From Granulicoccus phenolivorans DSM 17626 = NBRC 107789 = JCM 15570 (GTDB lineage Bacteria; Actinomycetota; Actinomycetes; Propionibacteriales; Propionibacteriaceae): a stretch of DNA of 64,000 bases. Position numbers and translations under genes: made by a program. The DNA is taken from assembly GCF_000423085.1 (NCBI RefSeq), contig NZ_AUHH01000023.1, positions 1 through 64,000 on the forward strand. The letters are read 5' to 3'. The notes beneath the pieces were generated by a model. That model was not told where the DNA came from, made no database searches, and saw only the letters and a program-made list of their open reading frames with translations. The stretch's first letter is position 1. Each line of letters starts with the position of its first letter. Of this stretch, positions 11,522 to 48,002 are shown one piece after another.

Positions 11522-11601
11522 GTGGGCGGATCCTGCCACCAGACACCGGAAATTGCCCCAGATCAGCGGAATTGGGCACGCTGGCGGCAGGATCGGACCA
11601 C
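11522..11601 (+). repeat. 80-bp palindromic interspersed repeat, copy A
   Basis: Starts GTGGGCGGATCCTGCCACCA and ends with the near-complement (CTGGCGGCAGGATCGGACCAC), so it can fold into a long imperfect hairpin. It is nearly identical to the copy at 11931-12010 and shares its ends, but not its loop, with copies near 34 kb and 39.6 kb. Confidence 0.8.
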
Positions 11602-11930: not shown

Positions 11931-12010
11931 GTGGGCGGATCCTGCCACCAGACACCGGAAATTGCCCCGGATCAGCAGAATTCGGCACGCTGGCGGCAGG
12001 ATCGGACCAC
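11931..12010 (+). repeat. 80-bp palindromic interspersed repeat, copy B
   Basis: Same orientation and length as the copy at 11522-11601 with only a few substitutions, and with the same GTGGGCGGATCCTG and CAGGATCGGACCAC ends. Confidence 0.8.
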
Positions 12011-33913: not shown

Positions 33914-34204
33914 CCCGGGGTACCCGGCCAATGTGGGCGGATCCTGACACCAGAGGCCCCGATTCGGCCGAACCAGCCCAATTTCGTCGACTGGTGGCAG
34001 GATCGGCCCACCACTCTTGGTCCAGCTGCCCAATCGCGGGCCCGGATCCCCACCCGGTGCCGGACGCGGCTCCGGGCCCCATGCGCGGGCTCACCAGCCC
34101 ATCCGCGGGCCCACATGCCCACCCGCGGGCCCATATCCCGTGCGCTGGCCCCGCACAGCCCGCGCCACACATGTCAGCCCGCGAAAAGACGATTGCCTCG
34201 CTGG
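33914..34204 (+). repeat. 291-bp composite interspersed repeat (copy C, complete)
   Basis: In order: a CCCCGGGGTACC flank, a 79-bp palindrome (33933-34011, GTGGGCGGATCCTGACACCA to CAGGATCGGCCCAC), a GGTGCCGGACGC segment, degenerate roughly 20-bp GCGGGCCCA units, and CACACATGTCAGCCCGCGAA near the end. A complete inverted copy lies at 39399-39690 with almost the same length and the same order. Confidence 0.8.
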
Positions 34205-34216
34205 ATGTCCCATTGG

Positions 34217-34384
34217 GCCCCGGGTACCCGGCCAATGTGGGCCGATCCTGACACCAGAGGCCCCGATTCGGCCGAACCAGCCCAATTCCTTCGTCTGGTG
34301 GCAGGATCGGCCCACCAGTCCGGACCCGGGCCCGTCCGCGAGCCCAGATCCCGACCCGGGTGCCGGACGCGGCCCGGCTGCGCC
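34217..34384 (+). repeat. Partial composite interspersed repeat (copy D)
   Basis: A second copy in the same orientation starts 13 bases after copy C: CCCGGGTACCCGGCCAATGT, the 79-bp palindrome at 34237-34315, and the GTGCCGGACGCGG segment. The tandem GCGGGCCCA units are missing. Confidence 0.75.
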
Positions 34385-36185: not shown

Positions 36186-37631
36186 TCAGGCCCGCTGGGG
36201 ATCCCCGCCAGTGCCCGGCGCGGTCGGGTCCGGCGCCGCGGCGAGCTCCCGGTACGCCGCGGACACCCGGCGATACACCGGACTGAGCAGGGCCAGGGCG
36301 GCGGCAAGCATCATCAGCAGCCCGGTGACCAGGAAGATCAGCGCAATCCCGCGGGCCGCGCCATACCCCAGCAGCGGTGCCAGGGTCCGCGCCCCCTCGG
36401 GTCCGGCCGCCCAGGGGATGATCCACAGTTGGGCCAGCGGCGCGAGCAGAAAAGCGGTGATCGGTGCCGCGCTCGCCTCGAAGGCGCCGGCGAAGCCGAA
36501 GACCCGACCCTGCCGGGCCAGCGGCACCACCCGCTGGATCACGGTCTGCTCGGCGGCCTCTACTGCCGGGGTGAGCATCATGTAGACCCAGATCCCGGCG
36601 ATGAACAGCCACGGCCACTCGCGCAGGGTGAACAGTACGCCGATCAGCCCCATCCCGACCACCGCGAGCAGCATGGTCCGCAAGGGATTGGGGCCGAGGC
36701 CGACGCGGGCCACGAGAATCCCCCCGCCGATGAACCCGGTCGCGGTGACCGCGTACACGGTCCCCCAGACCTGCACGGAGAACATTTCCAGGCCGTAGGG
36801 GTCCAACAGGGCCAGATAGCCTCCGCCCAGCAGGTTGTTGAACGTGGAGAACAGGATCAACGAGAACAGCCCCGGCACGCCACGCACCGCCCGGATCGAT
36901 CCGCGCAGATCGAAGTGACCGGTGGCGTCGGTGGCTGCCGGGCGTACTTCCTCGGGCATCCGCAGCGCCAGCAGATGGACCAACGCCAGCGCGACCAGAC
37001 CGACCGCGACCACCAGGGTGCCGCCCATCCCGAGAAAGCCGATGGACAGCCCGGACAGGAGGCTGGTCACCATGAACGCAACGCCCTGGACCGTGCCGAC
37101 CGCACCGTTGGCGTTGGCCCGGCGATCGGGGTCGACCAGGATGGTGACGGTGGTGGCCAGCGCGATGTTGCGCAGGTTCTCCACCACGGCGCCGAGCAGA
37201 ATGACCACCGCGAACAGCCACAGCCAGGGCTGGGTCATCGAGGTCATCGCCGCCCCACCGAGCCGGTAGATCAGCAGGGCGGCCAGGAAGCAGCCGAGGG
37301 TGACCAACGCCGAGGCCCGCATCACCACCAGCTTCAGGTGCCGGTCGACCAGGGTGCCGAAGCTGATGCTGGTCGCCGCCATCAGCAGCATGAAGGCGCC
37401 GCCCACCACGCCGGTGGCGATCACGTTGCGCGTCCGGAGGTAGATCCAGAAGGTCAACGCGAACCAGAGGTAGCTGGTGGTGATGCCGGCCAACCCGGTG
37501 TTGATCAGGACGTGGGTGAAGGTACGCATCCGCGCGGGCGCCGGTCGGATGGCCCGGTTCACTGCGGCCGGGTCAGCCAGGGGTTCGGCGGTGACGTCCG
37601 GGGTAGGTGTCACGCCGAAATGGTCGGACAT
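36186..37631 (-). CDS. MFS transporter, macrolide-efflux-like
   Basis: A 481-residue protein with about twelve helices. The early GTLVDRHLKLVVMRASALVT loop and the LVDPDRRANANGAVGTVQGVAF segment resemble MefA-like and related efflux MFS proteins. The substrate is unknown. A 55-residue hydrophilic N-terminus precedes helix 1. The ATG at 37631 lies seven bases after TAGAAT, a near-perfect -10, indicating a leaderless transcript. The open frame upstream of this ATG is Arg-rich and not coding-like. Confidence 0.8.
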   Translation of the reverse strand: MSDHFGVTPTPDVTAEPLADPAAVNRAIRPAPARMRTFTHVLINTGLAGITTSYLWFALTFWIYLRTRNVIATGVVGGAFMLLMAATSISFGTLVDRHLKLVVMRASALVTLGCFLAALLIYRLGGAAMTSMTQPWLWLFAVVILLGAVVENLRNIALATTVTILVDPDRRANANGAVGTVQGVAFMVTSLLSGLSIGFLGMGGTLVVAVGLVALALVHLLALRMPEEVRPAATDATGHFDLRGSIRAVRGVPGLFSLILFSTFNNLLGGGYLALLDPYGLEMFSVQVWGTVYAVTATGFIGGGILVARVGLGPNPLRTMLLAVVGMGLIGVLFTLREWPWLFIAGIWVYMMLTPAVEAAEQTVIQRVVPLARQGRVFGFAGAFEASAAPITAFLLAPLAQLWIIPWAAGPEGARTLAPLLGYGAARGIALIFLVTGLLMMLAAALALLSPVYRRVSAAYRELAAAPDPTAPGTGGDPQRA

Positions 37632-37638
37632 GCGATGA

Positions 37639-37644
37639 ATTCTA
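37639..37644 (-). promoter_or_regulatory. -10 box of the MFS gene, probably leaderless
   Basis: TAGAAT on the minus strand lies seven bases before the ATG at 37631. Confidence 0.5.
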
Positions 37645-37672
37645 GGTTTCCGGGGCCGGGCGGCCCACCGAT

Positions 37673-38350
37673 TTAATTGCCGCCCGGGTGGGCCACCCCC
37701 GACCCCGGATCGGCCCACTGCTGCGCCCAGGCGTACATGGCGATGGCCGCGGCGGCCCCGGCGTTGATCGACCGGGTCGAGCCGTACTGGGTGATCGCCA
37801 GCAGCTGCGTACAGGCGGCGGCGAGTTCGTCGGTCAGCCCGGAGGTCTCCGAGCCGAACACCAGCATCGCCGCTTCGGGCAGCGCGGCGGTCTCCAGCGG
37901 GACCGACCCGGGCAGGTTGTCGATCCCGATCATCGTGTAGCCGTGCTCGGCGCAGAATGCGGCCAGCTCCGCGGCGGACTCGTGGTGCAGCACGTGCAGG
38001 TAGCGGTCGGTGACCATCGCGCCACGGCGGTTCCAGCGCCGCTTGCCGACGATGTGCACCCCGGCGACGTTGAACGCGTTCGCGGTACGGACCACCGAGC
38101 CGATGTTGAAATCGTGCGACCAGTTCTGGATCGCGATCCGCAGCGGGTGTCGGCGGGTGTCCAGGTCGGCGCGGATCGCCGCGAGGGTCCAGTACCGGTA
38201 GCGATCCAGCACGTTGCGGGTGTCCCCGGCGGCCAGCAGCTCCGGGTCCAGGCGCGGATCATCGGGCCATGGCTGCGGGTGCGGCCCCACCCCCGGGACG
38301 TGTTCGGCGGGCACCCGGTCGGGGACGTTCTCGGTCTGGTCGTCACTCAC
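37673..38350 (-). CDS. SpoU/TrmH family RNA methyltransferase
   Basis: A 225-residue SPOUT methyltransferase. WSHDFNIGSVVRTANAFNV is motif 1, LVFGSETSGLTDEL motif 2 and YGSTRSINAGAAAAIAMYAW motif 3, which together form the trefoil knot binding SAM. The likely reaction is 2'-O-methylation of ribose in tRNA or rRNA; the exact nucleotide cannot be assigned. A roughly 45-residue N-terminal extension precedes the domain. The GTG start has TACGCT six bases upstream and no ribosome binding site. It is divergent from the peroxiredoxin-like gene. Confidence 0.88.
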   Translation of the reverse strand: MSDDQTENVPDRVPAEHVPGVGPHPQPWPDDPRLDPELLAAGDTRNVLDRYRYWTLAAIRADLDTRRHPLRIAIQNWSHDFNIGSVVRTANAFNVAGVHIVGKRRWNRRGAMVTDRYLHVLHHESAAELAAFCAEHGYTMIGIDNLPGSVPLETAALPEAAMLVFGSETSGLTDELAAACTQLLAITQYGSTRSINAGAAAAIAMYAWAQQWADPGSGVAHPGGN

Positions 38351-39335: not shown

Positions 39336-39398
39336 CGCAAGGAGCCTTCGGGCTGCGGGATCGGGCCCGCGCCCGGCATCGGGGTTCGGGGTCGCAAC

Positions 39399-39690
39399 CA
39401 GCGAGGCAGTCGTGGTTTCGCGGGCTGACATGTGTGGCGCTGGCCGTGCAGGGCCAGCGCACGGGATCTGGGCCCGCGGATGGGCATGTGGGCCCGCGGA
39501 TGGGCGTGTTGGCCCGCGCATGGGTGCCAGGAGCTGCGTCCGGCACCGGGTGGGGATCTGGGCCCGCGAAGGGGCAGCTGGACCCGGACTGGTGGGCCGA
39601 TCCTGCCACCAGACGACGAAAATGGGCTGGTTCGGCCCGAATCGGGGCCTCTGGTGTCAGGATCCGCCCACATCCGCCTGGTACCCCGGG
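39399..39690 (-). repeat. 292-bp composite interspersed repeat (copy E, inverted)
   Basis: Reverse complement of the element at 33914-34204: CAGCGAGGCAGTCG end, GCGGGCTGACATGTGTGGC, GGGCCCGCGGATGGGCATGT units, GCGTCCGGCACCGGGTGGGG, then the 80-bp palindrome at 39592-39671 and the GTACCCCGGG flank. The tandem units differ slightly in number and sequence. Confidence 0.8.
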
Positions 39691-41496: not shown

Positions 41497-41730
41497 GTGA
41501 CCGAGATCATTCAGAACCTGTCCAACCAGGTCGCCACGATCGGCGGCGCGCTGGCCACCCTGGCGTTCATCCTGCTCGGCATCAAGGCGATCGTCACCTT
41601 CAACAAGGGCGGCGGGCTGCGCGAGGTGCTCTCCGGTGGCGGGGTGATCTTCCTCGGCCTGATGCTGATCGGGGCCGCCGGCGTCCTGGTGGGCGCGATC
41701 CAGGCGATGGCCAAGGCCCTCGGGGCCTGA
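41497..41730 (+). CDS. Small two-helix membrane protein (TcpD/VirB2-like position)
   Basis: A 77-residue protein with two membrane helices: GGALATLAFILLGIKAIVTF and FLGLMLIGAAGVLVGAIQAM. They are separated by a basic, Gly-rich loop (NKGGGLREVLSGGG). The size, topology and position between the TcpC-like and TcpE-like genes match the TcpD or VirB2/pilin-like subunit of conjugation systems. GAGGAG lies a few bases before the GTG/ATG start region. No signal peptide cleavage site is obvious. The function is inferred from context. Confidence 0.65.
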   Translation: MTEIIQNLSNQVATIGGALATLAFILLGIKAIVTFNKGGGLREVLSGGGVIFLGLMLIGAAGVLVGAIQAMAKALGA

Positions 41731-41749
41731 GCCGGCCCGGGAGGAAGCT

Positions 41750-42247
41750 GTGCGTTCGTTCGACTACACCAGTCTGAAACAGCGGGAGAACAAGCTCTGG
41801 GAGTTCGGCGGGATCGCCATTCCCGGCGGCCTGTCCACGATCCGGGCCGGGATCGCCGGTGGGGTGTTCGTGGCCGGGGCGGCCCTGGTCGCAATCATCG
41901 GGCAGTTGGCGAAGGCGCCGCTGCTGACCGTCGGCGGGATGGTCCTGGCCGCGATCGTGGCGGTGCTGGCGTACGTCTGGGCGGGGCGGCCCAGCAGCGA
42001 CCGGATGACGTTGCCCCAGCAGGCGGCCGTGTTCGCCGACTATGTCTTCTCCCAGCCCCGGCGGATCAGCGGCTTCAGCCGCGACGTCGAGCCGGACCGG
42101 ATCCACTGGCAGGCGATCGTGTGGGAACCCACCGACGCGGACTGGTGGACCACCCATGATGTCTACGCCCGGCACTACCTCCAGCGCGCGATCGCCGAGC
42201 AGGAGGCGTCAGGGTGGGCGTGGCCGGGGACGGCGGGGCGACGATGA
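41750..42247 (+). CDS. TcpE-like membrane protein (VirB3/PrgI type)
   Basis: A 165-residue protein starting with GTG after GGGAGGAAG. An N-terminal YTSLKQRENKLWEFGGIAIP is followed by two membrane helices at about residues 33-75 and a soluble tail (FADYVFSQPRRISGF, WQAIVWEPTDADWW). TcpE/PrgI/VirB3 proteins have the same two-helix layout and dock the VirB4 ATPase at the membrane. Its stop overlaps the ATG of the VirB4-like gene (ATGA at 42244-42247), indicating coupled synthesis. Confidence 0.7.
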   Translation: MRSFDYTSLKQRENKLWEFGGIAIPGGLSTIRAGIAGGVFVAGAALVAIIGQLAKAPLLTVGGMVLAAIVAVLAYVWAGRPSSDRMTLPQQAAVFADYVFSQPRRISGFSRDVEPDRIHWQAIVWEPTDADWWTTHDVYARHYLQRAIAEQEASGWAWPGTAGRR

Positions 42248-45200
42248 TGCGGATCATCCTGTACGTCCTGCTGGTCATCGCGGCCGTCGTCGCGGTCGGG
42301 GTGGTGATCGCCGCGGTGAACGGGCGCCGCAATTCCGGACCCGGCCCGCGTACCGGCGGGGGCCCCGGCCCGAAGAGTTCGGGTCCGCGGGGGCAGCAGC
42401 CCGGGCGCGGGGAGGATCTGCGGCTGGGCTACCGCTACGACGCCGGCGCGGTATTCGTCCATCGGAACACGGTCTGGACCGGGGTGAAACTGGAGCCGGT
42501 CGGGAACATGTACCTGTCGGCCACCGATGTGGAGGCGCTGGCCAATCAGGCCACCCAGGCGCTGGTGAACAGTGCGGTCGACGCCGATCCGGTGCAGGTG
42601 CAGTTCCGGTTGACCCACCAGCCGTTCAACGTCGATGAGTGGAAACAGCAGCTGCTGGCCAACTCCTGGCACCCCTCGAAGCTGTACCGCGGCTACCTGG
42701 ATGCGACCGCGTTCTTCCTGCGGCACACCAAGACGGTACGCCCGGTGGCGTACCTGCTGGTCCAGATCGACACGCTGGAACCGAGCCGCCTCAGTGAGAT
42801 CCGGCGCTCGGCGAACGCGGCGCTGCTCGGCTCCGACGACGAGTTCATCCCGCCGGATCTGGCCGCGAAATGGGAGATCACCGCGCAACGAGTGATGCGC
42901 AATGTGACCAGCCTCGGCCCGATCGAGCCGATCGGCCGGGAAGACCGGATGTGGCTGATCCGCAAACCGCTGGCCGGACACTTCGCGCCGAGCATGAACG
43001 ACTTCCCGCGGACCAAGCCGTGGGGCGAGGGCGAGTTCGCGCTGTGGGTGGACTTCACCGCGGAGAACAAGCGGCAGTATCTGCACATCGAGACGTTGAA
43101 CGAGAACGTCACCGAGGCCGACCGCAACGAGGATTCCGACCAGTTGCACTCCTATACCGCCTGCCTGGCGGTCGCCGAATGGCCGGAGCACTCCGAGACC
43201 AACGCCAACAACGACTGGATCCGGCACTTCGCCGGCGAAGGGGTCGAGGTCTCCTACCGGATGGAACTGCTCCCGCCGCGCAAGTTCCGCGAGGAACTGG
43301 AGAAGATCAACAACAACCTGCGCTCGGAGCTGAAGAACATGGGCGCGGCGACCGGCGGCGGGGTCACCGACGTGCTGGTGGTCGATGAGCAGTCCCGGGC
43401 CCAGGAGGCGGTCAACCGGGCCCGGCAGACGCACAAGCCCGGGGTGAACGGGCAGGTGATGATCCAGGTGTCCGCGCCGACGCTGGAAGAGCTGAATGCC
43501 CGGGTCGAGGCGCTGATCATCAATGCGAAGAATGCACTGAACGACACGATCCTGGTCCGGCCCAGCCGGTACCAGTGGCGGATGCTGGAGTCCTTCCTGC
43601 CCGGGACCGGTCCGGCGCTGCCGGCGGTTCCCTATGTCCGGCTGACCGAACCGGAGACCTTCGGGATCGGCTTCCCGCGCGCCGGGGTAGTGATCGGCGA
43701 CCGAGTGACCCGGGCCGCCGACGGCCACACCCTCGGCTGGGTCGGCAACTACATCGGCGAGTCCCAGGGGGTACCGGTGTTCCACTCCCCGCACTCGGGG
43801 ATCGCGCGGAACTCCGGCGGTGGGGTGTTCATCGTCGGTGGCTCCGGTGGCGGGAAGTCGTCGCTGGCGCTGCTGATGTTCTTCCAGGCCTCCGAGTCCG
43901 GCGTCCAGTCGGTGGTGCTCGACCCGAAGACCGACTTCGCGCAGTTCTGCTACTACCTGTCCTTCGGGGCGCAGGTGAACCATCCCGACTTCCGGGTCGA
44001 AGCGGCGGCGGGGACGCTCGGGCAGCCCGGATCCCGGTTCACCCCGGTCAATCCGGAGTTCTGGGCCGAGACCGAGGTGATCGACATCGTCGCCTCGCCG
44101 GCCGGCGTCCTGGATCCGTGGCAGGTCGAGGGGAACCTCGAGGCCGGGGCGCTGCTGGCCGACGAGATGCTGACCATGTTCCTCGGCAAGCGGGTCCGCG
44201 ACCGGCTCGACGATGTGGTGGTCCCGGCGATCGACACGGTCAAGCAGCGGTATCAGTTGCGGGTCGAGGCGGCGGTCCGGGCGTACCTGCAGGCGCAGCC
44301 GGTGGACGAGCGGGACCGCGCCCGGGTGGCCGATCAGGTCGCGGCGACCGTGCCGATGCCGACGCTGTGGGAGGTCGTCCAGGTCGTCCAGGAGGAGGCG
44401 GCGCGGGTCGATGCGCTGCCCGATGTGCCGTATGAGTCGAAACGGGAACTGACCCGGGCCGCGATCCAGTTGCGGCAGTTGCTGGGCCTGCCGTACGCCT
44501 CGCTGGCCTTCGCGGAGCGACCGCACGGGTTCGCCCGGCTGCGCAAGCGGCGCACGGTGTTCACCCTGCGCGGGATGAAACTGCCGAAGGGCCAGATCGA
44601 TGAGGAGATGTGGTCCAAGGAGGAACGGCTGGCCTCGGCGATCATGTACGTGCTGGTGAAGTACGCCGCGCAGATGCTGGACAACAAGGTGATCCTGAAT
44701 CCGGAGACCGGGCGCAGCGGGGTGCAGCCCAAGATGTTGTTCGTCGACGAGTCCTACCTGGTCACCTCGACCAAGGGCGGGCGGGAACTGCTGCTGACCA
44801 CGCTGGCGCAGGGTCGCTCGTACGGGCTGATCACTGTGCTGATCGATCAGCTGGCCAAGCGGCTGGGGCAGATCGAGTCCTCCGGCCGGGACTCCGACGG
44901 GCCGTCGGCGAACCAGGTGCAGTCGGTGTTCGCGTTCCTGCAGCGCTCCGATGACGATGCCCGCTCGGTGGCGCCGTTGTTGACCCGGGGGCAGAACTCG
45001 GAGACGATCGCGCAGGCGTTGCTGCCGATCGGCATGGGCGGGCACCTGGAGACCGGTCGGGCGCTGTTCCGGGACCTGGATTTCCATGTCGCGCTGACCG
45101 ACATCGACCTGCTGTTCAAGGAATTGCTGCGCGCCTCCGACACCAACCCGGCGACCCGCAGCATGTCGCAACGACACTCCATCTCCCCGGATCCGTGGGA

Positions 45201-45366
45201 GTGGGAGTTCATCACCAACGACGACCGGGAGGCGGCGATCACCGAGGCCGAACAGCAGGCCGAGGAGGAACTCGCCGCCGAACAGGCGACCCTGCCGCCG
45301 GTGGCGACACCGGGTCAGCTCGGGCCGGGTCAGCTCGGGCCGGATCAGCTCGGGGCCCGGCGATGA
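42244..45366 (+). CDS. VirB4/TcpF-like type IV secretion ATPase
   Basis: A 1040-residue ATPase with one N-terminal membrane helix (about residues 3-22). A VirB4-type N-terminal domain (about 60-450) is followed by the motor domain. Walker A is VGGSGGGKSSLAL near residue 532 and Walker B is KMLFVDESYLV near 829, with LLTTLAQGRSYGLITVLIDQ after it, as in VirB4/TraC/TcpF ATPases. Two overlapping ATGs (42244, 42247) are possible. VirB4 proteins power assembly of the channel and substrate transfer. The four-base overlaps with the genes on both sides show one coupled operon. The C-terminus carries a GQLGPGQLGPDQLG repeat. Confidence 0.85.
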   Translation: MMRIILYVLLVIAAVVAVGVVIAAVNGRRNSGPGPRTGGGPGPKSSGPRGQQPGRGEDLRLGYRYDAGAVFVHRNTVWTGVKLEPVGNMYLSATDVEALANQATQALVNSAVDADPVQVQFRLTHQPFNVDEWKQQLLANSWHPSKLYRGYLDATAFFLRHTKTVRPVAYLLVQIDTLEPSRLSEIRRSANAALLGSDDEFIPPDLAAKWEITAQRVMRNVTSLGPIEPIGREDRMWLIRKPLAGHFAPSMNDFPRTKPWGEGEFALWVDFTAENKRQYLHIETLNENVTEADRNEDSDQLHSYTACLAVAEWPEHSETNANNDWIRHFAGEGVEVSYRMELLPPRKFREELEKINNNLRSELKNMGAATGGGVTDVLVVDEQSRAQEAVNRARQTHKPGVNGQVMIQVSAPTLEELNARVEALIINAKNALNDTILVRPSRYQWRMLESFLPGTGPALPAVPYVRLTEPETFGIGFPRAGVVIGDRVTRAADGHTLGWVGNYIGESQGVPVFHSPHSGIARNSGGGVFIVGGSGGGKSSLALLMFFQASESGVQSVVLDPKTDFAQFCYYLSFGAQVNHPDFRVEAAAGTLGQPGSRFTPVNPEFWAETEVIDIVASPAGVLDPWQVEGNLEAGALLADEMLTMFLGKRVRDRLDDVVVPAIDTVKQRYQLRVEAAVRAYLQAQPVDERDRARVADQVAATVPMPTLWEVVQVVQEEAARVDALPDVPYESKRELTRAAIQLRQLLGLPYASLAFAERPHGFARLRKRRTVFTLRGMKLPKGQIDEEMWSKEERLASAIMYVLVKYAAQMLDNKVILNPETGRSGVQPKMLFVDESYLVTSTKGGRELLLTTLAQGRSYGLITVLIDQLAKRLGQIESSGRDSDGPSANQVQSVFAFLQRSDDDARSVAPLLTRGQNSETIAQALLPIGMGGHLETGRALFRDLDFHVALTDIDLLFKELLRASDTNPATRSMSQRHSISPDPWEWEFITNDDREAAITEAEQQAEEELAAEQATLPPVATPGQLGPGQLGPDQLGARR

Positions 45367-48002
45367 GCCGGCGTCCGGGAGCACGGCCGCGGTTGCGGCG
45401 GTGGGGGCCGGTGCGGGTGCTGCTCGCGGTGGTCTTCGTGGTCACCGCGGCGCTGATCGTCCTGCCGGCGAACACCTCGCAGGCCGCCGAGCCCGCCGAG
45501 TGTGCGCCGCTGCCGATGTTCTCCGCGCATCAGCCGTACGCCAAGGACGCCGCCCAACTGATGGCGGTCGAGCCGGGACTGGACCCCAAGGACAAGGTCG
45601 AGGTCTGGGACACCGCCAAGGGCCGTCCGGCGCAGGGTTTCACGCTGTACCAGGCGATGGGCATGTCCGGGGCGACCTGGTCGAGCACCAAGGTGGTGCA
45701 GCAGCAGGGGTTCACCGGGGGCCAGGAGGGTGCCGGGGAGTGGGCCTGCGCGTACCTGCCGAGCACGCTGAACATGGTCGCGAACTCGATGTTCGACCTG
45801 GCGAAACTCATCACCGCCGGGACGATCTCGTTCCGGTCGCTGGCGGCGAACCCGCAACTGGTGGTGAATCTGTTCGATCAGGCCGTGGCGCCGGTGAACC
45901 AGATCTCCACCCAGCTGTTCCTCGGCATGTCGGTGGTGATGGTGATGCTGACCGGGGCGTACGTGGTGCTGACCGGGGCGCTGCGGAACCGGAACCGGCA
46001 GCGGGAAACCCTGCAGGCGCTGCTCGGGGTGGGCGTGTTCATGCTGATCGGCACGTTCCTGGTGATTCCGTCGACCCAGCACAACGAGCGCAAACCGAAC
46101 TACTACTGGCTGACCACGTCGGCGCTGAACACCATCAATTCCGGCAATCAGGCGCTGGCCTCGACGCTGCTGCCGAAGACCTCGAGTGCGTACTGCAGTT
46201 CCGACGATGCCCGGCGTACCTTCGATTGTCTGCTGTACCAGAACATGGTCTTCGAGCCGTGGGCGAACGGGCAGTTCGGCACCGACCTGGCCGAGCCGAT
46301 GCCGGTCCGCAGTGACGGGTTGGCGAAGTTCGGCGCGACCGTCGACGGGGTGATCCCGACCGCGGAGCAGGGCCAGTCGGATCTGCGATTGGTGCAGTTG
46401 TGGACCCAGGGGTACACCGCTTCGGAGGTGGCCCACGGGCCGCGGCCGGCGGGCAATCCGCAGGATCTGGCGAACGCGAAACCCGAGGAGCGCCAGGGCC
46501 AGTGGAATGCGGTGCGGGAGGTGATGTGGACCCACTACAACCCGCACTATCCGACCTGGCAGGGGGCCAACGCCGGGGAGCGGGTGAATCTGGCGTTCTT
46601 CGCGCTGTTGTTGTCGATCCTGGTCGGGGCGTTCGTGGTGGTGACCTCGGCGCTGCTGCTGTTGTGGAACTGCGTACTGGTCGTGCTGTTCTTCTTCCTG
46701 CCGATCCTGGCGCTGGCCGGGCTCTTCCCGCCGACGCAGCGGATCTTCCGAACCTGGCTGACCACGTGGTTGAAGGCGCTGGGGCTGAGTTTCGTGTTCC
46801 AGCTGGGGCAGACGCTGGCGATGCTGATGGTGACTGCCGCGCTCAGCCTGCCCAATGTCGGGATGGGGATGAAGGCCGCGCTGCTGCTGATCATGCTGCT
46901 GGCGCTGTGGAAGGTGATCGGGTTCACCCGCAACGAGATGTCGGTGACCGCGCGCGCGGAGACCCCGGCGCATGAGGCGAAGGCGGCCGACACCTCCCGG
47001 GTGAACGTGAACACGATCACGATGCCGGCGGTGACGGCGGCCGGGACTGCGCGGGCGACGGCGAATCCGGTGACCGCGGCGGCGTCGCGGGGTCCGGGGG
47101 TGGCGCGGACGAATCCGCAGGCGTTGAGTACGCCGGGCAAGCGGCGCGAGGCGAAGTTGTCGGCGTTGCTGGCCGAGGCCGAGGAACGCTGGGTCGCCGA
47201 GCACGGCAATCCGATGGACGAGCGGACCCGGGTGCGGGTACGCGAGGACCTGCTGCGCAGCCAGGGCGTGGTCGATGACACCGCCCGGACCGGGACCCGG
47301 CGCCGATCGGCGGCGCTGGGGGCGGCGGTCCGCAATGATCGGCGCGGCCGGGAAGCCGTTGCGGCCAAGCATCAGGTGGCGGCCGAGCGGGCCGGGCAGG
47401 TGGACCGCTCGGAATCGGCCGCCGGAGCCGATGGTGCGTCCTCGGCCGCGGCGGCCGGTCCGACGGTCAACCACACGACGAACAACTACAACTTCCTGCG
47501 CACCGATCGACCGAAGCCGCCGGAGCGGGCGGCCCGTGGGAGCTCCGGGTCCGGGCTGAGCGGGCCGGGGAACCGGATCCGGCGCGGCACGATCAACCGG
47601 TCCGCGGCGCCGGAGACCCGCGAGCTGGCGAACGAGGCCCGCCGGATGGAGGCGGAGTACCGCCGCCGCGGGGTGTCCTCAAACGGCTATTCCTCCGGGG
47701 ACCCGATGACCCCGGGAATCGCTGCCAAACTGCGCGCCACGAGTTTCCGGGAGCAACTGGTCGCCGCGCAGCAGGAGCACGGTCGCGCGGTGGTCGAGCG
47801 GGACAAGGCGGCGCGGGAGTTCCAGCTGGTCAGCGGGCAGCGGGCCAAGGGGCAGGCGACCGACGAGCAGGTCGACTCCGCCCGCCGGACCGCGCGGCAG
47901 GCATCGGTCGCCCTGGAGCAGGCAACCGTGTTGGTGCAGAACCGGACGCGAGTGTCGCGGGAGGCGGACCGGCAGGCCGACGAGGCGGGCGGCGCCGGAT
48001 GA
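45363..48002 (+). CDS. VirB6/TrbL/TcpH-like polytopic membrane protein
   Basis: An 879-residue protein. Residues 1-45 form a probable signal peptide (VRVLLAVVFVVTAALIVLPA, then SQAAEPAEC). A loop domain of about 170 residues follows, then helices clustered at about 185-250 and 420-560 (LLSILVGAFVVVTSALLLLW, VLVVLFFFLPILALAGLF). From about 570 on it is hydrophilic, Ala/Arg/Glu-rich and largely helical or disordered. This layout is that of VirB6/TrbL/TcpH, the membrane pore component. Its ATG overlaps the VirB4-like stop (ATGA), and its own stop overlaps the next ATG the same way. Confidence 0.75.
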   Translation: MSRRPGARPRLRRWGPVRVLLAVVFVVTAALIVLPANTSQAAEPAECAPLPMFSAHQPYAKDAAQLMAVEPGLDPKDKVEVWDTAKGRPAQGFTLYQAMGMSGATWSSTKVVQQQGFTGGQEGAGEWACAYLPSTLNMVANSMFDLAKLITAGTISFRSLAANPQLVVNLFDQAVAPVNQISTQLFLGMSVVMVMLTGAYVVLTGALRNRNRQRETLQALLGVGVFMLIGTFLVIPSTQHNERKPNYYWLTTSALNTINSGNQALASTLLPKTSSAYCSSDDARRTFDCLLYQNMVFEPWANGQFGTDLAEPMPVRSDGLAKFGATVDGVIPTAEQGQSDLRLVQLWTQGYTASEVAHGPRPAGNPQDLANAKPEERQGQWNAVREVMWTHYNPHYPTWQGANAGERVNLAFFALLLSILVGAFVVVTSALLLLWNCVLVVLFFFLPILALAGLFPPTQRIFRTWLTTWLKALGLSFVFQLGQTLAMLMVTAALSLPNVGMGMKAALLLIMLLALWKVIGFTRNEMSVTARAETPAHEAKAADTSRVNVNTITMPAVTAAGTARATANPVTAAASRGPGVARTNPQALSTPGKRREAKLSALLAEAEERWVAEHGNPMDERTRVRVREDLLRSQGVVDDTARTGTRRRSAALGAAVRNDRRGREAVAAKHQVAAERAGQVDRSESAAGADGASSAAAAGPTVNHTTNNYNFLRTDRPKPPERAARGSSGSGLSGPGNRIRRGTINRSAAPETRELANEARRMEAEYRRRGVSSNGYSSGDPMTPGIAAKLRATSFREQLVAAQQEHGRAVVERDKAAREFQLVSGQRAKGQATDEQVDSARRTARQASVALEQATVLVQNRTRVSREADRQADEAGGAG

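What the first reader, a model, noticed from the sequence alone, without database searches (positions are those of the whole stretch)
33914..34384. Composite interspersed repeat with a palindromic head and tandem GCGGGCCCA tail
Seen: a 291-bp unit (33914-34204), a partial second copy directly after it, and an inverted 292-bp copy at 39399-39690. All have the same order of parts: CCCGGGGTACC flank, 79-80-bp palindrome, GTGCCGGACGC, GCGGGCCCA-type units, TGACATGTG end. The heads can form a long hairpin with ends GTGGGC..GATCCTG/CAGGATC..GCCCAC. No coding capacity is seen. Inference: a non-autonomous mobile repeat (MITE- or REP-like), possibly undescribed.
Basis: partly seen in the sequence, partly recalled or inferred. 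Interest (0 to 1): 0.62.

Follow-up and report, generated by a model that had tools for sequence, protein, structure and literature searches.

The report
Dispersed palindromes with a partner nuclease
The repeat's 80-base head is one of about fifty scattered palindromes in this bacterium, and related palindromes in many other bacteria sit beside genes for a DNA-binding nuclease that probably spreads them, much as known bacterial palindromes are spread by an unrelated enzyme.

Summary
The repeat is real, but only its head is interspersed. The head (33933-34011, 34237-34315, 39592-39671 minus) belongs to a family of about 51 palindromes, nearly all intergenic and 80 bp long, in this 4.12-Mb genome. 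The arms are conserved (~21-23 bp). The centre differs from copy to copy, yet its length is fixed (17 of 19 sites 38 bp and 2 of 19 37 bp, in a search allowing 23-53) and its A/T is phased every ~10 bp, as in bent double-stranded DNA. The 291-bp composite is a local duplication. Related palindromes with other arms occur in 61 of 197 family genomes (this one included). Among gene clusters beside them, one had all four members there: AbiEi-like DNA-binding domain plus DUF559 nuclease, related to a homing endonuclease. In 27 genomes whose genes did not build the search model, 15 genes have a palindrome within 250 bp. Flanking arms match dispersed arms of the same genome (12 of 29 palindromes at 17 or more of 20 bases; no cross-genome comparison). 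This genome has one such gene for the main family and one for a subfamily, and no RAYT was found in it. Best reading: a REPIN/RAYT-like selfish system with an unrelated nuclease. Association shown; binding, cutting and copying inferred. No description found in the library searched.

The parts
33933..34011 (+). dispersed palindromic element ('head'), copy 1, 79 bp; arms 33933-33953 and 33991-34011
34237..34315 (+). dispersed palindromic element, copy 2, 79 bp, same centre as copy 1 (local direct pair, 304 bp apart)
39592..39671 (-). dispersed palindromic element, copy 3, 80 bp, inverted relative to copies 1 and 2
11522..11601 (+). another member of the same family, 80 bp
11931..12010 (+). another member, 80 bp, 77 of 80 identical to 11522-11601; homology stops 0 and 1 bp outside the element
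33914..34204 (+).
34218..34377 (+). partial direct copy of the composite unit
39398..39690 (-). inverted copy of the composite unit, 91% identical
34078..34180 (+). tail of about 20-bp CGCGGGCCC-type units (GC-rich array type seen elsewhere in the genome); limits approximate
   Evidence: (D2, D8)
39457..39536 (-). same tail array in the inverted copy
   Evidence: D2

Best explanation
The head is a member of a genome-wide family of non-coding 80-bp elements that are the DNA sites, and most likely the non-autonomous mobile units, of a two-domain protein encoded elsewhere in the genome: an AbiEi-type winged-helix DNA-binding domain followed by a DUF559 (Vsr / I-Bth0305I-like) nuclease. Likely working: one protein binds each ~23-bp arm, as AbiEi binds its 23-bp inverted repeats. 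The 33-34-bp spacer, about three helical turns and A/T-phased every ~10 bp, bends so that the two bound proteins meet. The nuclease then nicks or cuts, and repair copies the element with few or no flanking bases to a nearby or distant intergenic place. The gene often lies between two direct copies of its palindrome, so gene plus palindromes would be the autonomous unit and solitary palindromes its passengers or remnants. Gene lineages have their own arms, giving species-specific families, as RAYT transposases do for REPINs, but with an unrelated enzyme. Shown: dispersal, fixed length, phasing, gene-palindrome linkage, cognate arms for nine genes, domain content. Inferred: binding, bending, cutting, copying, selfish upkeep.
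For: Dispersal: 52 places in the own genome (C22:336 and C5:123 are probably one place at two contig ends, so about 51), 51 of 52 outside called genes. Fixed length: 48 of 52 are 80 bp and 4 are 79; an arm-only pattern allowing spacers of 23-53 gave 19 sites, 17 with 38 and 2 with 37, reversed control 0. Phasing: 31 non-redundant copies, 0 of 1000 shuffles at periods 8-12.5; 15 of the 19 arm-selected sites; at 9.5-10.5 also 0 of 1000 circular shifts; 30 loci from 30 other genomes; flanks flat. Other genomes: 61 of 197, own included. Gene link: of 722 ORFs beside elements of 14 genomes, nine clusters lay near elements in two or more genomes; this was the only one of four or more members with all of them near (4 of 4, 3 genomes). 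In 30 gene loci taken by gene score, 27 of 30 palindromes lie within 250 bp of the gene, 18 of 30 genes have one and 7 have one on both sides; without the three genomes that built the model, 23 of 26 palindromes, 15 of 27 genes, 6 both sides. Within 500 bp 19 of 30 (16 of 27), against 20 of 214 slices around another gene in other taxa. Cognate arms: 12 of 29 flanking palindromes (9 genes, 6 genomes) match dispersed arms of their own genome at >=17 of 20 and no cross-genome comparison exceeds 16. Co-occurrence: 57 of 61 element genomes hold the gene, 75 of 136 others. Domains: DUF559 in 29 of 29, an AbiEi model in 24 of 29; PDB 3r3p 'mobile intron protein' E 2.3e-6. Copying: eight same-centre local pairs at 71-79 of 80, the window pair 75 of 79, with homology ending 0-41 bp outside. 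AbiEi precedent: two 23-bp inverted repeats, bending (PMC7319586, passages).
Against: No movement was observed; no other genome of this genus was among those searched. No target duplication. 11 of 30 genes had no palindrome within 500 bp at the strict threshold, 6 of 26 gene loci had none, and 17 of 29 flanking palindromes matched no sampled dispersed family, so many genes may have no passengers. The gene is also in 75 genomes where the 80-bp model found no element. At one place in genome G401 a copy is shared at the same position with relative G268, outer arms kept, which shows vertical upkeep, not movement. Upstream palindromes about 90-215 bp before the gene also suit an autoregulatory operator. 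Gene/element co-occurrence is not corrected for relatedness or genome size. One local pair, C5:28560/28866, is only 47 of 80 alike without gaps. In family f7 the palindromes are about 53 bp, so the three-turn spacing is not universal.
Confidence: 0.65

Rival explanations
1. The palindromes are operators of a regulon or of a genome-wide architectural role: the AbiEi-DUF559 protein is a repressor/nucleoid-type protein, and copies are kept because they serve the host.
For: AbiEi and Rv2827c are autorepressors bound to 23-bp inverted repeats in their promoters (PMC7319586, passages); an upstream palindrome about 90-215 bp before many of these genes; phased A/T; one copy kept at the same place in two species.
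Against: Copies are over-represented, per gap of 100 bp or more, between convergent genes (11 of 17 such gaps against 30 of 122 others, p 0.0014, in loci chosen around elements), where an operator has nothing to regulate; downstream palindromes beside the gene; arms differ strongly between species of one genus; same-centre local duplicates. The acidic residues E196, D225, E236, D238 and D252 are invariant in 29 of 29, which pure regulation would not need.
Confidence: 0.16
2. The genomic copies are decoys or self-marks of a defence or addiction system: the nuclease is held on, or restrained by, its genomic sites and released on invasion, or punishes loss of the locus.
For: AbiEi-type and DUF559-type domains both occur in defence models; intact nuclease motifs.
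Against: The matches are to single domains, not to a named complete system; the 80-bp model found no element in 75 of 132 genomes with the gene. A partner toxin or defence island was not searched for, so this rival is little tested.
Confidence: 0.1
3. Classical REPIN/REP system with a RAYT (Y1 HUH) transposase, or a MITE of an ordinary transposase.
For: Inverted doublets of conserved ends with a spacer of conserved length and variable sequence are the definition of REPINs (PMC3116915, passages).
Against: No Y1_Tnp (PF01797) match in G000, G027, G010, G004, G015 or G006; 2 of the 8 genomes searched have one. Arms do not co-vary inside the genome (208 of 500 shuffles reach the score), whereas compensatory changes are reported as common in REPINs. 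Centres not homologous and no target duplication, against a MITE. DDE transposases were not searched for.
Confidence: 0.04
4. Only a local duplication and inversion in the window.
For: True of the 291-bp composite.
Against: The head has 49 further places besides the three copies.
Confidence: 0.02

Closest known systems
REPINs with RAYT transposases (TnpA-REP)
   Same: Short extragenic inverted doublets, conserved ends, spacer of conserved length but freer sequence, tens of copies, several arm families per genome, genes with nearby copies of their own family (compare PMC3116915, passages).
   Different: Enzyme is an AbiEi-DUF559 protein, not a Y1 HUH transposase; no compensatory pairing within the genome; 10-bp A/T phasing of the spacer (not mentioned in the passages I saw for REPINs).
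CGTC-tagged REPs
   Same: Palindromic repeats, predominantly dimers, said to lack a dedicated transposase (PMC3733652, abstract and passages).
   Different: Unit stems of 8-9 bp with a CGTC tag in the paper's table; the words actinobacter, propionibacter and mycobacter do not occur in its main text. No direct sequence comparison was made.
AbiEi / Rv2827c antitoxin operators (type IV toxin-antitoxin)
   Same: N-terminal domain family; inverted repeats of about 23 bp; bending of the promoter DNA reported for AbiEi (PMC7319586, passages). Spacers 3, 13, then here 33-34 and 65 differ by about whole helical turns.
   Different: C-terminal domain is a nuclease; sites are dispersed in dozens of copies; the 53-bp palindromes of family f7 (spacer 7 if arms are 23) do not fit the spacing series.
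I-Bth0305I-type (EDxHD, Vsr-like) homing endonucleases
   Same: Homologous nuclease domain (3r3p, E 2.3e-6; that 3r3p is I-Bth0305I is recalled); selfish spread by a site-specific nuclease is the analogous logic (recalled).
   Different: Not known to be in an intron or intein; the presumed recognition site is a dispersed palindrome, not a conserved host gene; the gene often lies between two copies of the site.
MITEs (for example Correia elements)
   Same: Short, non-coding, terminal inverted repeats.
   Different: No shared interior except in local pairs, no target duplication; Correia features are recalled, not tested.

Membership tests
REPIN/RAYT | inverted doublet of conserved extragenic sequences with spacer of conserved length | tested here: met
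REPIN/RAYT | cognate Y1 (HUH) tyrosine transposase gene in the genome | tested here: not met
   no PF01797 match in G000 (98.46% complete draft)
REPIN/RAYT | gene flanked by its own palindromes and matching dispersed copies | tested here: met
   met in organisation for nine genes, with a DUF559 protein instead of a RAYT:
REPIN/RAYT | compensatory changes keeping a single-strand hairpin | tested here: not met
   covariation 0.058 against 0.057 shuffled within G000; arms change together only between genomes
MITE | shared interior sequence between copies | tested here: not met
   centres share only a weak A/T-phased consensus, apart from local pairs
MITE | target-site duplication | tested here: not met
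   no excess of equal flanking 2-8-mers in 52 copies
AbiEi-type DNA-binding protein | N-terminal AbiEi domain | tested here: met
   one PADLOC AbiEi model in 24 of 29 members, best 9.2e-27; Pfam AbiEi_4 in 8 of 29. Weak for the own C22 protein itself, which has no AbiEi row in either call
AbiE type IV toxin-antitoxin system | adjacent DUF1814/AbiEii toxin gene | not tested
   no systematic search of neighbours for the toxin was made
DUF559 / Vsr-like nuclease | domain match and conserved acidic motif | tested here: met
   Pfam DUF559 in 29 of 29; E196, R197, D225, E236, D238, D252 invariant
homing endonuclease | site-specific cleavage leading to copying of the gene | not testable with these tools
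   homology only (3r3p)

The most novel reading that the evidence does not exclude
A previously unrecognised superfamily of bacterial mobile DNA: palindromic elements moved not by a transposase acting on single strands but by AbiEi-DUF559 nucleases acting on bent double-stranded sites. It is spread over many genera of at least two families, with nuclease gene lineages founding their own species-specific repeat families. It would give a function to a large part of the unexplained AbiEi/DUF559 genes in these bacteria.
Probability: 0.5. Interest if true: 0.86.

Novelty: new variant of a known kind. Interest (0 to 1): 0.74.

Why it matters
REPINs are the best-studied case (as I recall) of short repeats kept for long times inside bacterial genomes, and their known enzymes are the RAYTs. 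A second, independent enzyme with the same genomic pattern would show that this life style evolved more than once and would let its rules be compared. It also proposes a concrete role for AbiEi-DUF559 proteins, which are common in the genomes searched here (132 of 197) and for which I found no study, and a testable link between antitoxin-type DNA binding, DNA bending and a homing-type nuclease. The binding and cleavage tests are simple.

Tried and rejected
Composite mobile repeat: rejected, only local copies found. RNA family: none in Rfam at gathering scores; no tRNA. RNA or ssDNA hairpin under selection inside the genome: not supported. RAYT: no match in G000. Gene remnants between local pairs: tblastn of four nucleases against the window and 36 own loci found only the two genes themselves. 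Phage carriage: a scan of viral contigs matched 48 stretches, one a partial relative. Transcription terminator or promoter role: no fixed orientation to genes, though convergent gaps are over-represented; genes were called with my own crude codon-position script, and the loci were chosen around elements. Other gene clusters beside elements: nine reached two or more genomes. The largest (17 members, 5 near) is ABC transporters, another (6 members, 3 near) aldo/keto reductases, and two more are an MFS transporter and a pyrimidine phosphorylase-type family; I read these as ordinary neighbours. Four clusters of two members each, both near, were not looked into. An Lrp-like octamer was considered, because the dyads lie 31 bp apart, and dropped when the AbiEi link appeared. 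Empty-site test for the nuclease unit of G178: flanking homology of relatives stops at about the start of the upstream palindrome and the unit is absent in G135, but the other side differs too, so there is no clean empty site. Empty-site test in G401: of nine relatives, G268 shares the copy, G518 lacks it, G563, G531 and G517 have other sequence there, and G565, G544, G535 and G508 could not be anchored. Alignment A4 used wrong frames and was discarded; A5 replaces it.

Rows dropped: C31:11398-11464 (67 bp, E 0.07), leaving 52 places; that search scored 150 of 8310 candidates, so 52 is a lower bound. One search used 15 of the 19 sites (two of 79 bp and two with a shared centre left out). One search used 31 of 48 (near-identical centres left out). 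Loci were picked by a covariance model whose centre was trained partly on this genome, and the model is 80 positions long, so lengths and phasing found with it are not independent; searches are free of that for this genome. include three genes that built the protein model; one search gives the counts without them. At looser palindrome thresholds one search gives 26 of 30 genes (16 of 20 bases; 41 palindromes within 250 bp, 18 farther) and 30 of 30 (15 of 20; 65 against 124 farther, so mostly background).

Full report
What was checked. The window is G000:C21:1-64000 of a 4.12-Mb, 74-contig draft genome. The aldolase gene next to the repeat is closest, among named genomes, to an Intrasporangiaceae MAG, Propioniferax innocua, an Actinomycetota MAG and Nocardioides (80-82% identity), so a Propionibacteriaceae-like actinobacterium is my guess.

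The head is dispersed and the composite is not. BLAST with the 291-bp unit found the full unit only in the window, but its first ~98 bases, or part of them, in many other places. A covariance model of 31 heads (A1, R1) found 52 places in the genome at E <= 1e-3, 48 of exactly 80 bp and 4 of 79. A pattern that fixes only part of the arms and lets the spacer vary from 23 to 53 found 19 sites, 17 with a spacer of 38 and two, both in the window, with 37; the same pattern read backwards found none. So the length is a real constraint. Arms read GTGGGCCGATCCTGCCACCAG ... CTGGTGGCAGGATCGGCCCAC with variants (GTGGTC, GTGTCC, and a weaker GTGTGC subfamily). 51 of 52 copies lie outside called genes: 15 between convergent, 25 between tandem and 7 between divergent genes, 4 undetermined; one overlaps the end of the nuclease gene described below.

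Anatomy. Centres are not alike between copies, except in local pairs and for a weak consensus. Columns 22-59 show A/T peaks at about 30-32, 39-42 and 49-52, in step with A/T in and next to the arms (9-10, 20-22, 59-61, 71-72). The ~10-bp period is far above shuffles in 31 non-redundant copies and in 15 copies selected by arms alone, also against circular shifts. Thirty elements of 30 other genomes show the same, with flat flanks, though these were picked with a model partly trained here. Each arm is itself an imperfect palindrome (GTGGnnnGATCnnnCCAC, dyad at 9.5; read from the sequence), so dyads stand at 9.5, 40.5 and 71.5, 31 bp apart. Within this genome the arms do not co-vary more than shuffles; between genomes they change together. 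This suits two protein sites on one side of bent double-stranded DNA better than a hairpin kept for its pairing.

Other genomes. With R1, 7 of 57 genomes searched (the own one included) had matches, among them 79-bp elements in G027 and 111-bp elements in G010 (31 bp longer). A generic model from six genomes (A2, R2) found matches in 61 of 197 genomes of the family, 16 of 29 genera, the listed ones almost all of 79 or 80 bp (the model itself has 80 positions) and with other arms. In the loci fetched from G178, arm-only palindrome detection shows three dispersed families with different arms.

The partner gene. I called ORFs in loci of mostly 8 kb around elements of 14 genomes (722 ORFs, own crude caller) and clustered them. 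Nine clusters lay within 600 bp of elements in two or more genomes. The largest is ABC transporters with 5 of 17 members near. Only one cluster of four or more had every member near: four members in three genomes, two of them in this genome. They are ~280-aa proteins with a DUF559 nuclease domain and an AbiEi-like N-terminal half. In 29 members DUF559 is matched in 29 and one AbiEi model in 24, and the acidic motif is invariant; for this genome's own C22 protein the N-terminal assignment rests on the alignment, since no AbiEi model hit it directly in those calls. The closest solved structures are 3hrl and 3r3p, 'mobile intron protein', which I recall as I-Bth0305I. The gene is in 132 of 197 family genomes at E <= 1e-20. 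Of the 61 genomes with elements 57 have it, of the other 136 75 do (p 2.5e-8, not corrected for relatedness).

Gene and palindromes belong together. In the 30 best-scoring gene loci, one per genome, 27 of 30 de novo palindromes lie within 250 bp of the gene. 18 of 30 genes have one there and 7 have one on both sides. Three of these genomes had supplied the genes for the model; without them it is 23 of 26 palindromes, 15 of 27 genes and 6 on both sides. Within 500 bp it is 19 of 30 (16 of 27), against 20 of 214 slices around the aldolase gene of other actinobacteria. In one search, 20 of 26 gene loci show at least one flanking palindrome. The usual layout is one centred about 90-215 bp upstream and one about 20-110 bp downstream, in direct orientation where both share arms; in L317 and L318 of G178 the pair shares its centre. 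Of 29 flanking palindromes at 18 of 22 gene loci, 12 (nine genes, six genomes) match dispersed arms of their own genome at 17 or more of 20 bases, and no cross-genome comparison exceeds 16; the other 17 matched no sampled dispersed family. In this genome the C22 gene (about 43792-44643 minus) carries the main arms and the C13 gene (about 37453-38292 plus) the GTGTGC arms. The window heads therefore most likely belong to the C22 gene. Two further genes of the family, C1:177757 and C18:36927, have no or unrelated palindromes.

Beyond the family. In a sample of the class, 20 of 296 genomes have the gene at E <= 1e-30: three of this family, 14 of family f7 and three of other families. 12 of 28 loci looked at have a palindrome within 400 bp of the gene (two of the 12 in this family); in f7 several are about 53 bp. 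An arm-only, length-blind pattern found 18, 9, 7, 5 and 0 copies in five f7 genomes, none with the reversed control, and 38 of the 39 have the same length; in G401 a copy lies on each side of a gene. One G401 copy is shared at the same place with G268, outer arms kept and centre changed, and is missing in G518.

Copying. Ten local pairs were compared. Eight are 71-79 of 80 identical, the window pair is 75 of 79, and C5:28560/28866 only 47 of 80 without gaps. Homology reaches 0-41 bp outside the element; for C21:11522/11931 and C7:68545/70399 it is 0-1 bp. That points to copying of the element itself. No target duplication was found. In G178 the unit palindrome-gene-palindrome of L317 is absent in G135 at the corresponding place.

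Mechanism and comparison. AbiEi binds two 23-bp inverted repeats 3 bp apart and bends the DNA; Rv2827c binds pairs 13 bp apart (PMC7319586, passages only). With 23-bp arms the spacer here is 33-34 bp, and 65 bp in G010, that is about 2 and 5 helical turns more than 13. The 53-bp palindromes of f7 do not fit this series. REPINs share the doublet, the conserved spacer length and the cognate gene (PMC3116915, passages only), but no gene of their enzyme family was found in this genome. CGTC-tagged REPs are said to lack a dedicated transposase (PMC3733652, abstract and passages). I read the system as REPIN-like in behaviour and not a REPIN by membership. Binding, bending, cutting and movement are inferred.

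Novelty. Full-text searches for DUF559 with AbiEi (0 papers), DUF559 with palindrom (2 unrelated), palindromic repeats in Propionibacteriaceae (1, unrelated by its title and abstract start) and REPIN, RAYT, Vsr or AbiEi combinations (listings only, several capped at 12 rows) showed no description of it. The library lacks most subscription papers.

Noticed in passing
whole genome G000; window 34078-34180 and 39457-39536; for example L425 (G000:C5:77185, 77593, 77798), G000:C7:10-542: A second dispersed repeat: palindrome CGCGGNNNCTGCAGNNNCCGCG, 70 sites with up to 1 mismatch against 3 for the reversed pattern, many at contig ends. Around several of the eight loci looked at lie ~20-bp units with CGCGGG on one side and CCCGCG on the other, unit sequence differing by locus. 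Three local head pairs enclose one. CGCGGGYCC is denser near heads (0.50 per kb within 400 bp, 0.07-0.13 farther out, window excluded), but among intergenic gaps only 0.36 against 0.18 per kb.
   Followed up: partly
window 41497-48002: A run of genes that look like a conjugation/type IV secretion-type operon (large ATPase-like ORF 42214-45366 and membrane protein ORF to 48002). The naming is from recall of motifs, not from a family search.
   Followed up: no
L396:17066-18583 (G401): A 1.5-kb stretch, 99% identical to another place of G401 (C1:646188), begins inside a 53-bp palindrome, perhaps an insertion sequence that targets these palindromes.
   Followed up: no
L252:4177, L253:3707 (G191): A further long inverted repeat (about 125 bp, TTCGGCAGGCCCAGGGAACGACC... 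in L252) in two places of G191 near the palindromes.
   Followed up: no
G000:C5 and C22: Copies cluster: 12 of 52 on the 185-kb contig C5 and 5 on C22, none on the 277-kb C1; C22:336 and C5:123 are identical and probably the same place at two contig ends.
   Followed up: partly
L080, L082 (G008:C29:18277 and 77264): G008 has two Y1_Tnp genes as well as the new palindromes, so both repeat systems may coexist there.
   Followed up: no
L069 and L072 (G054): Two 80-bp palindromes about 67 kb apart are exact inverted copies of each other, including the flanks shown.
   Followed up: no
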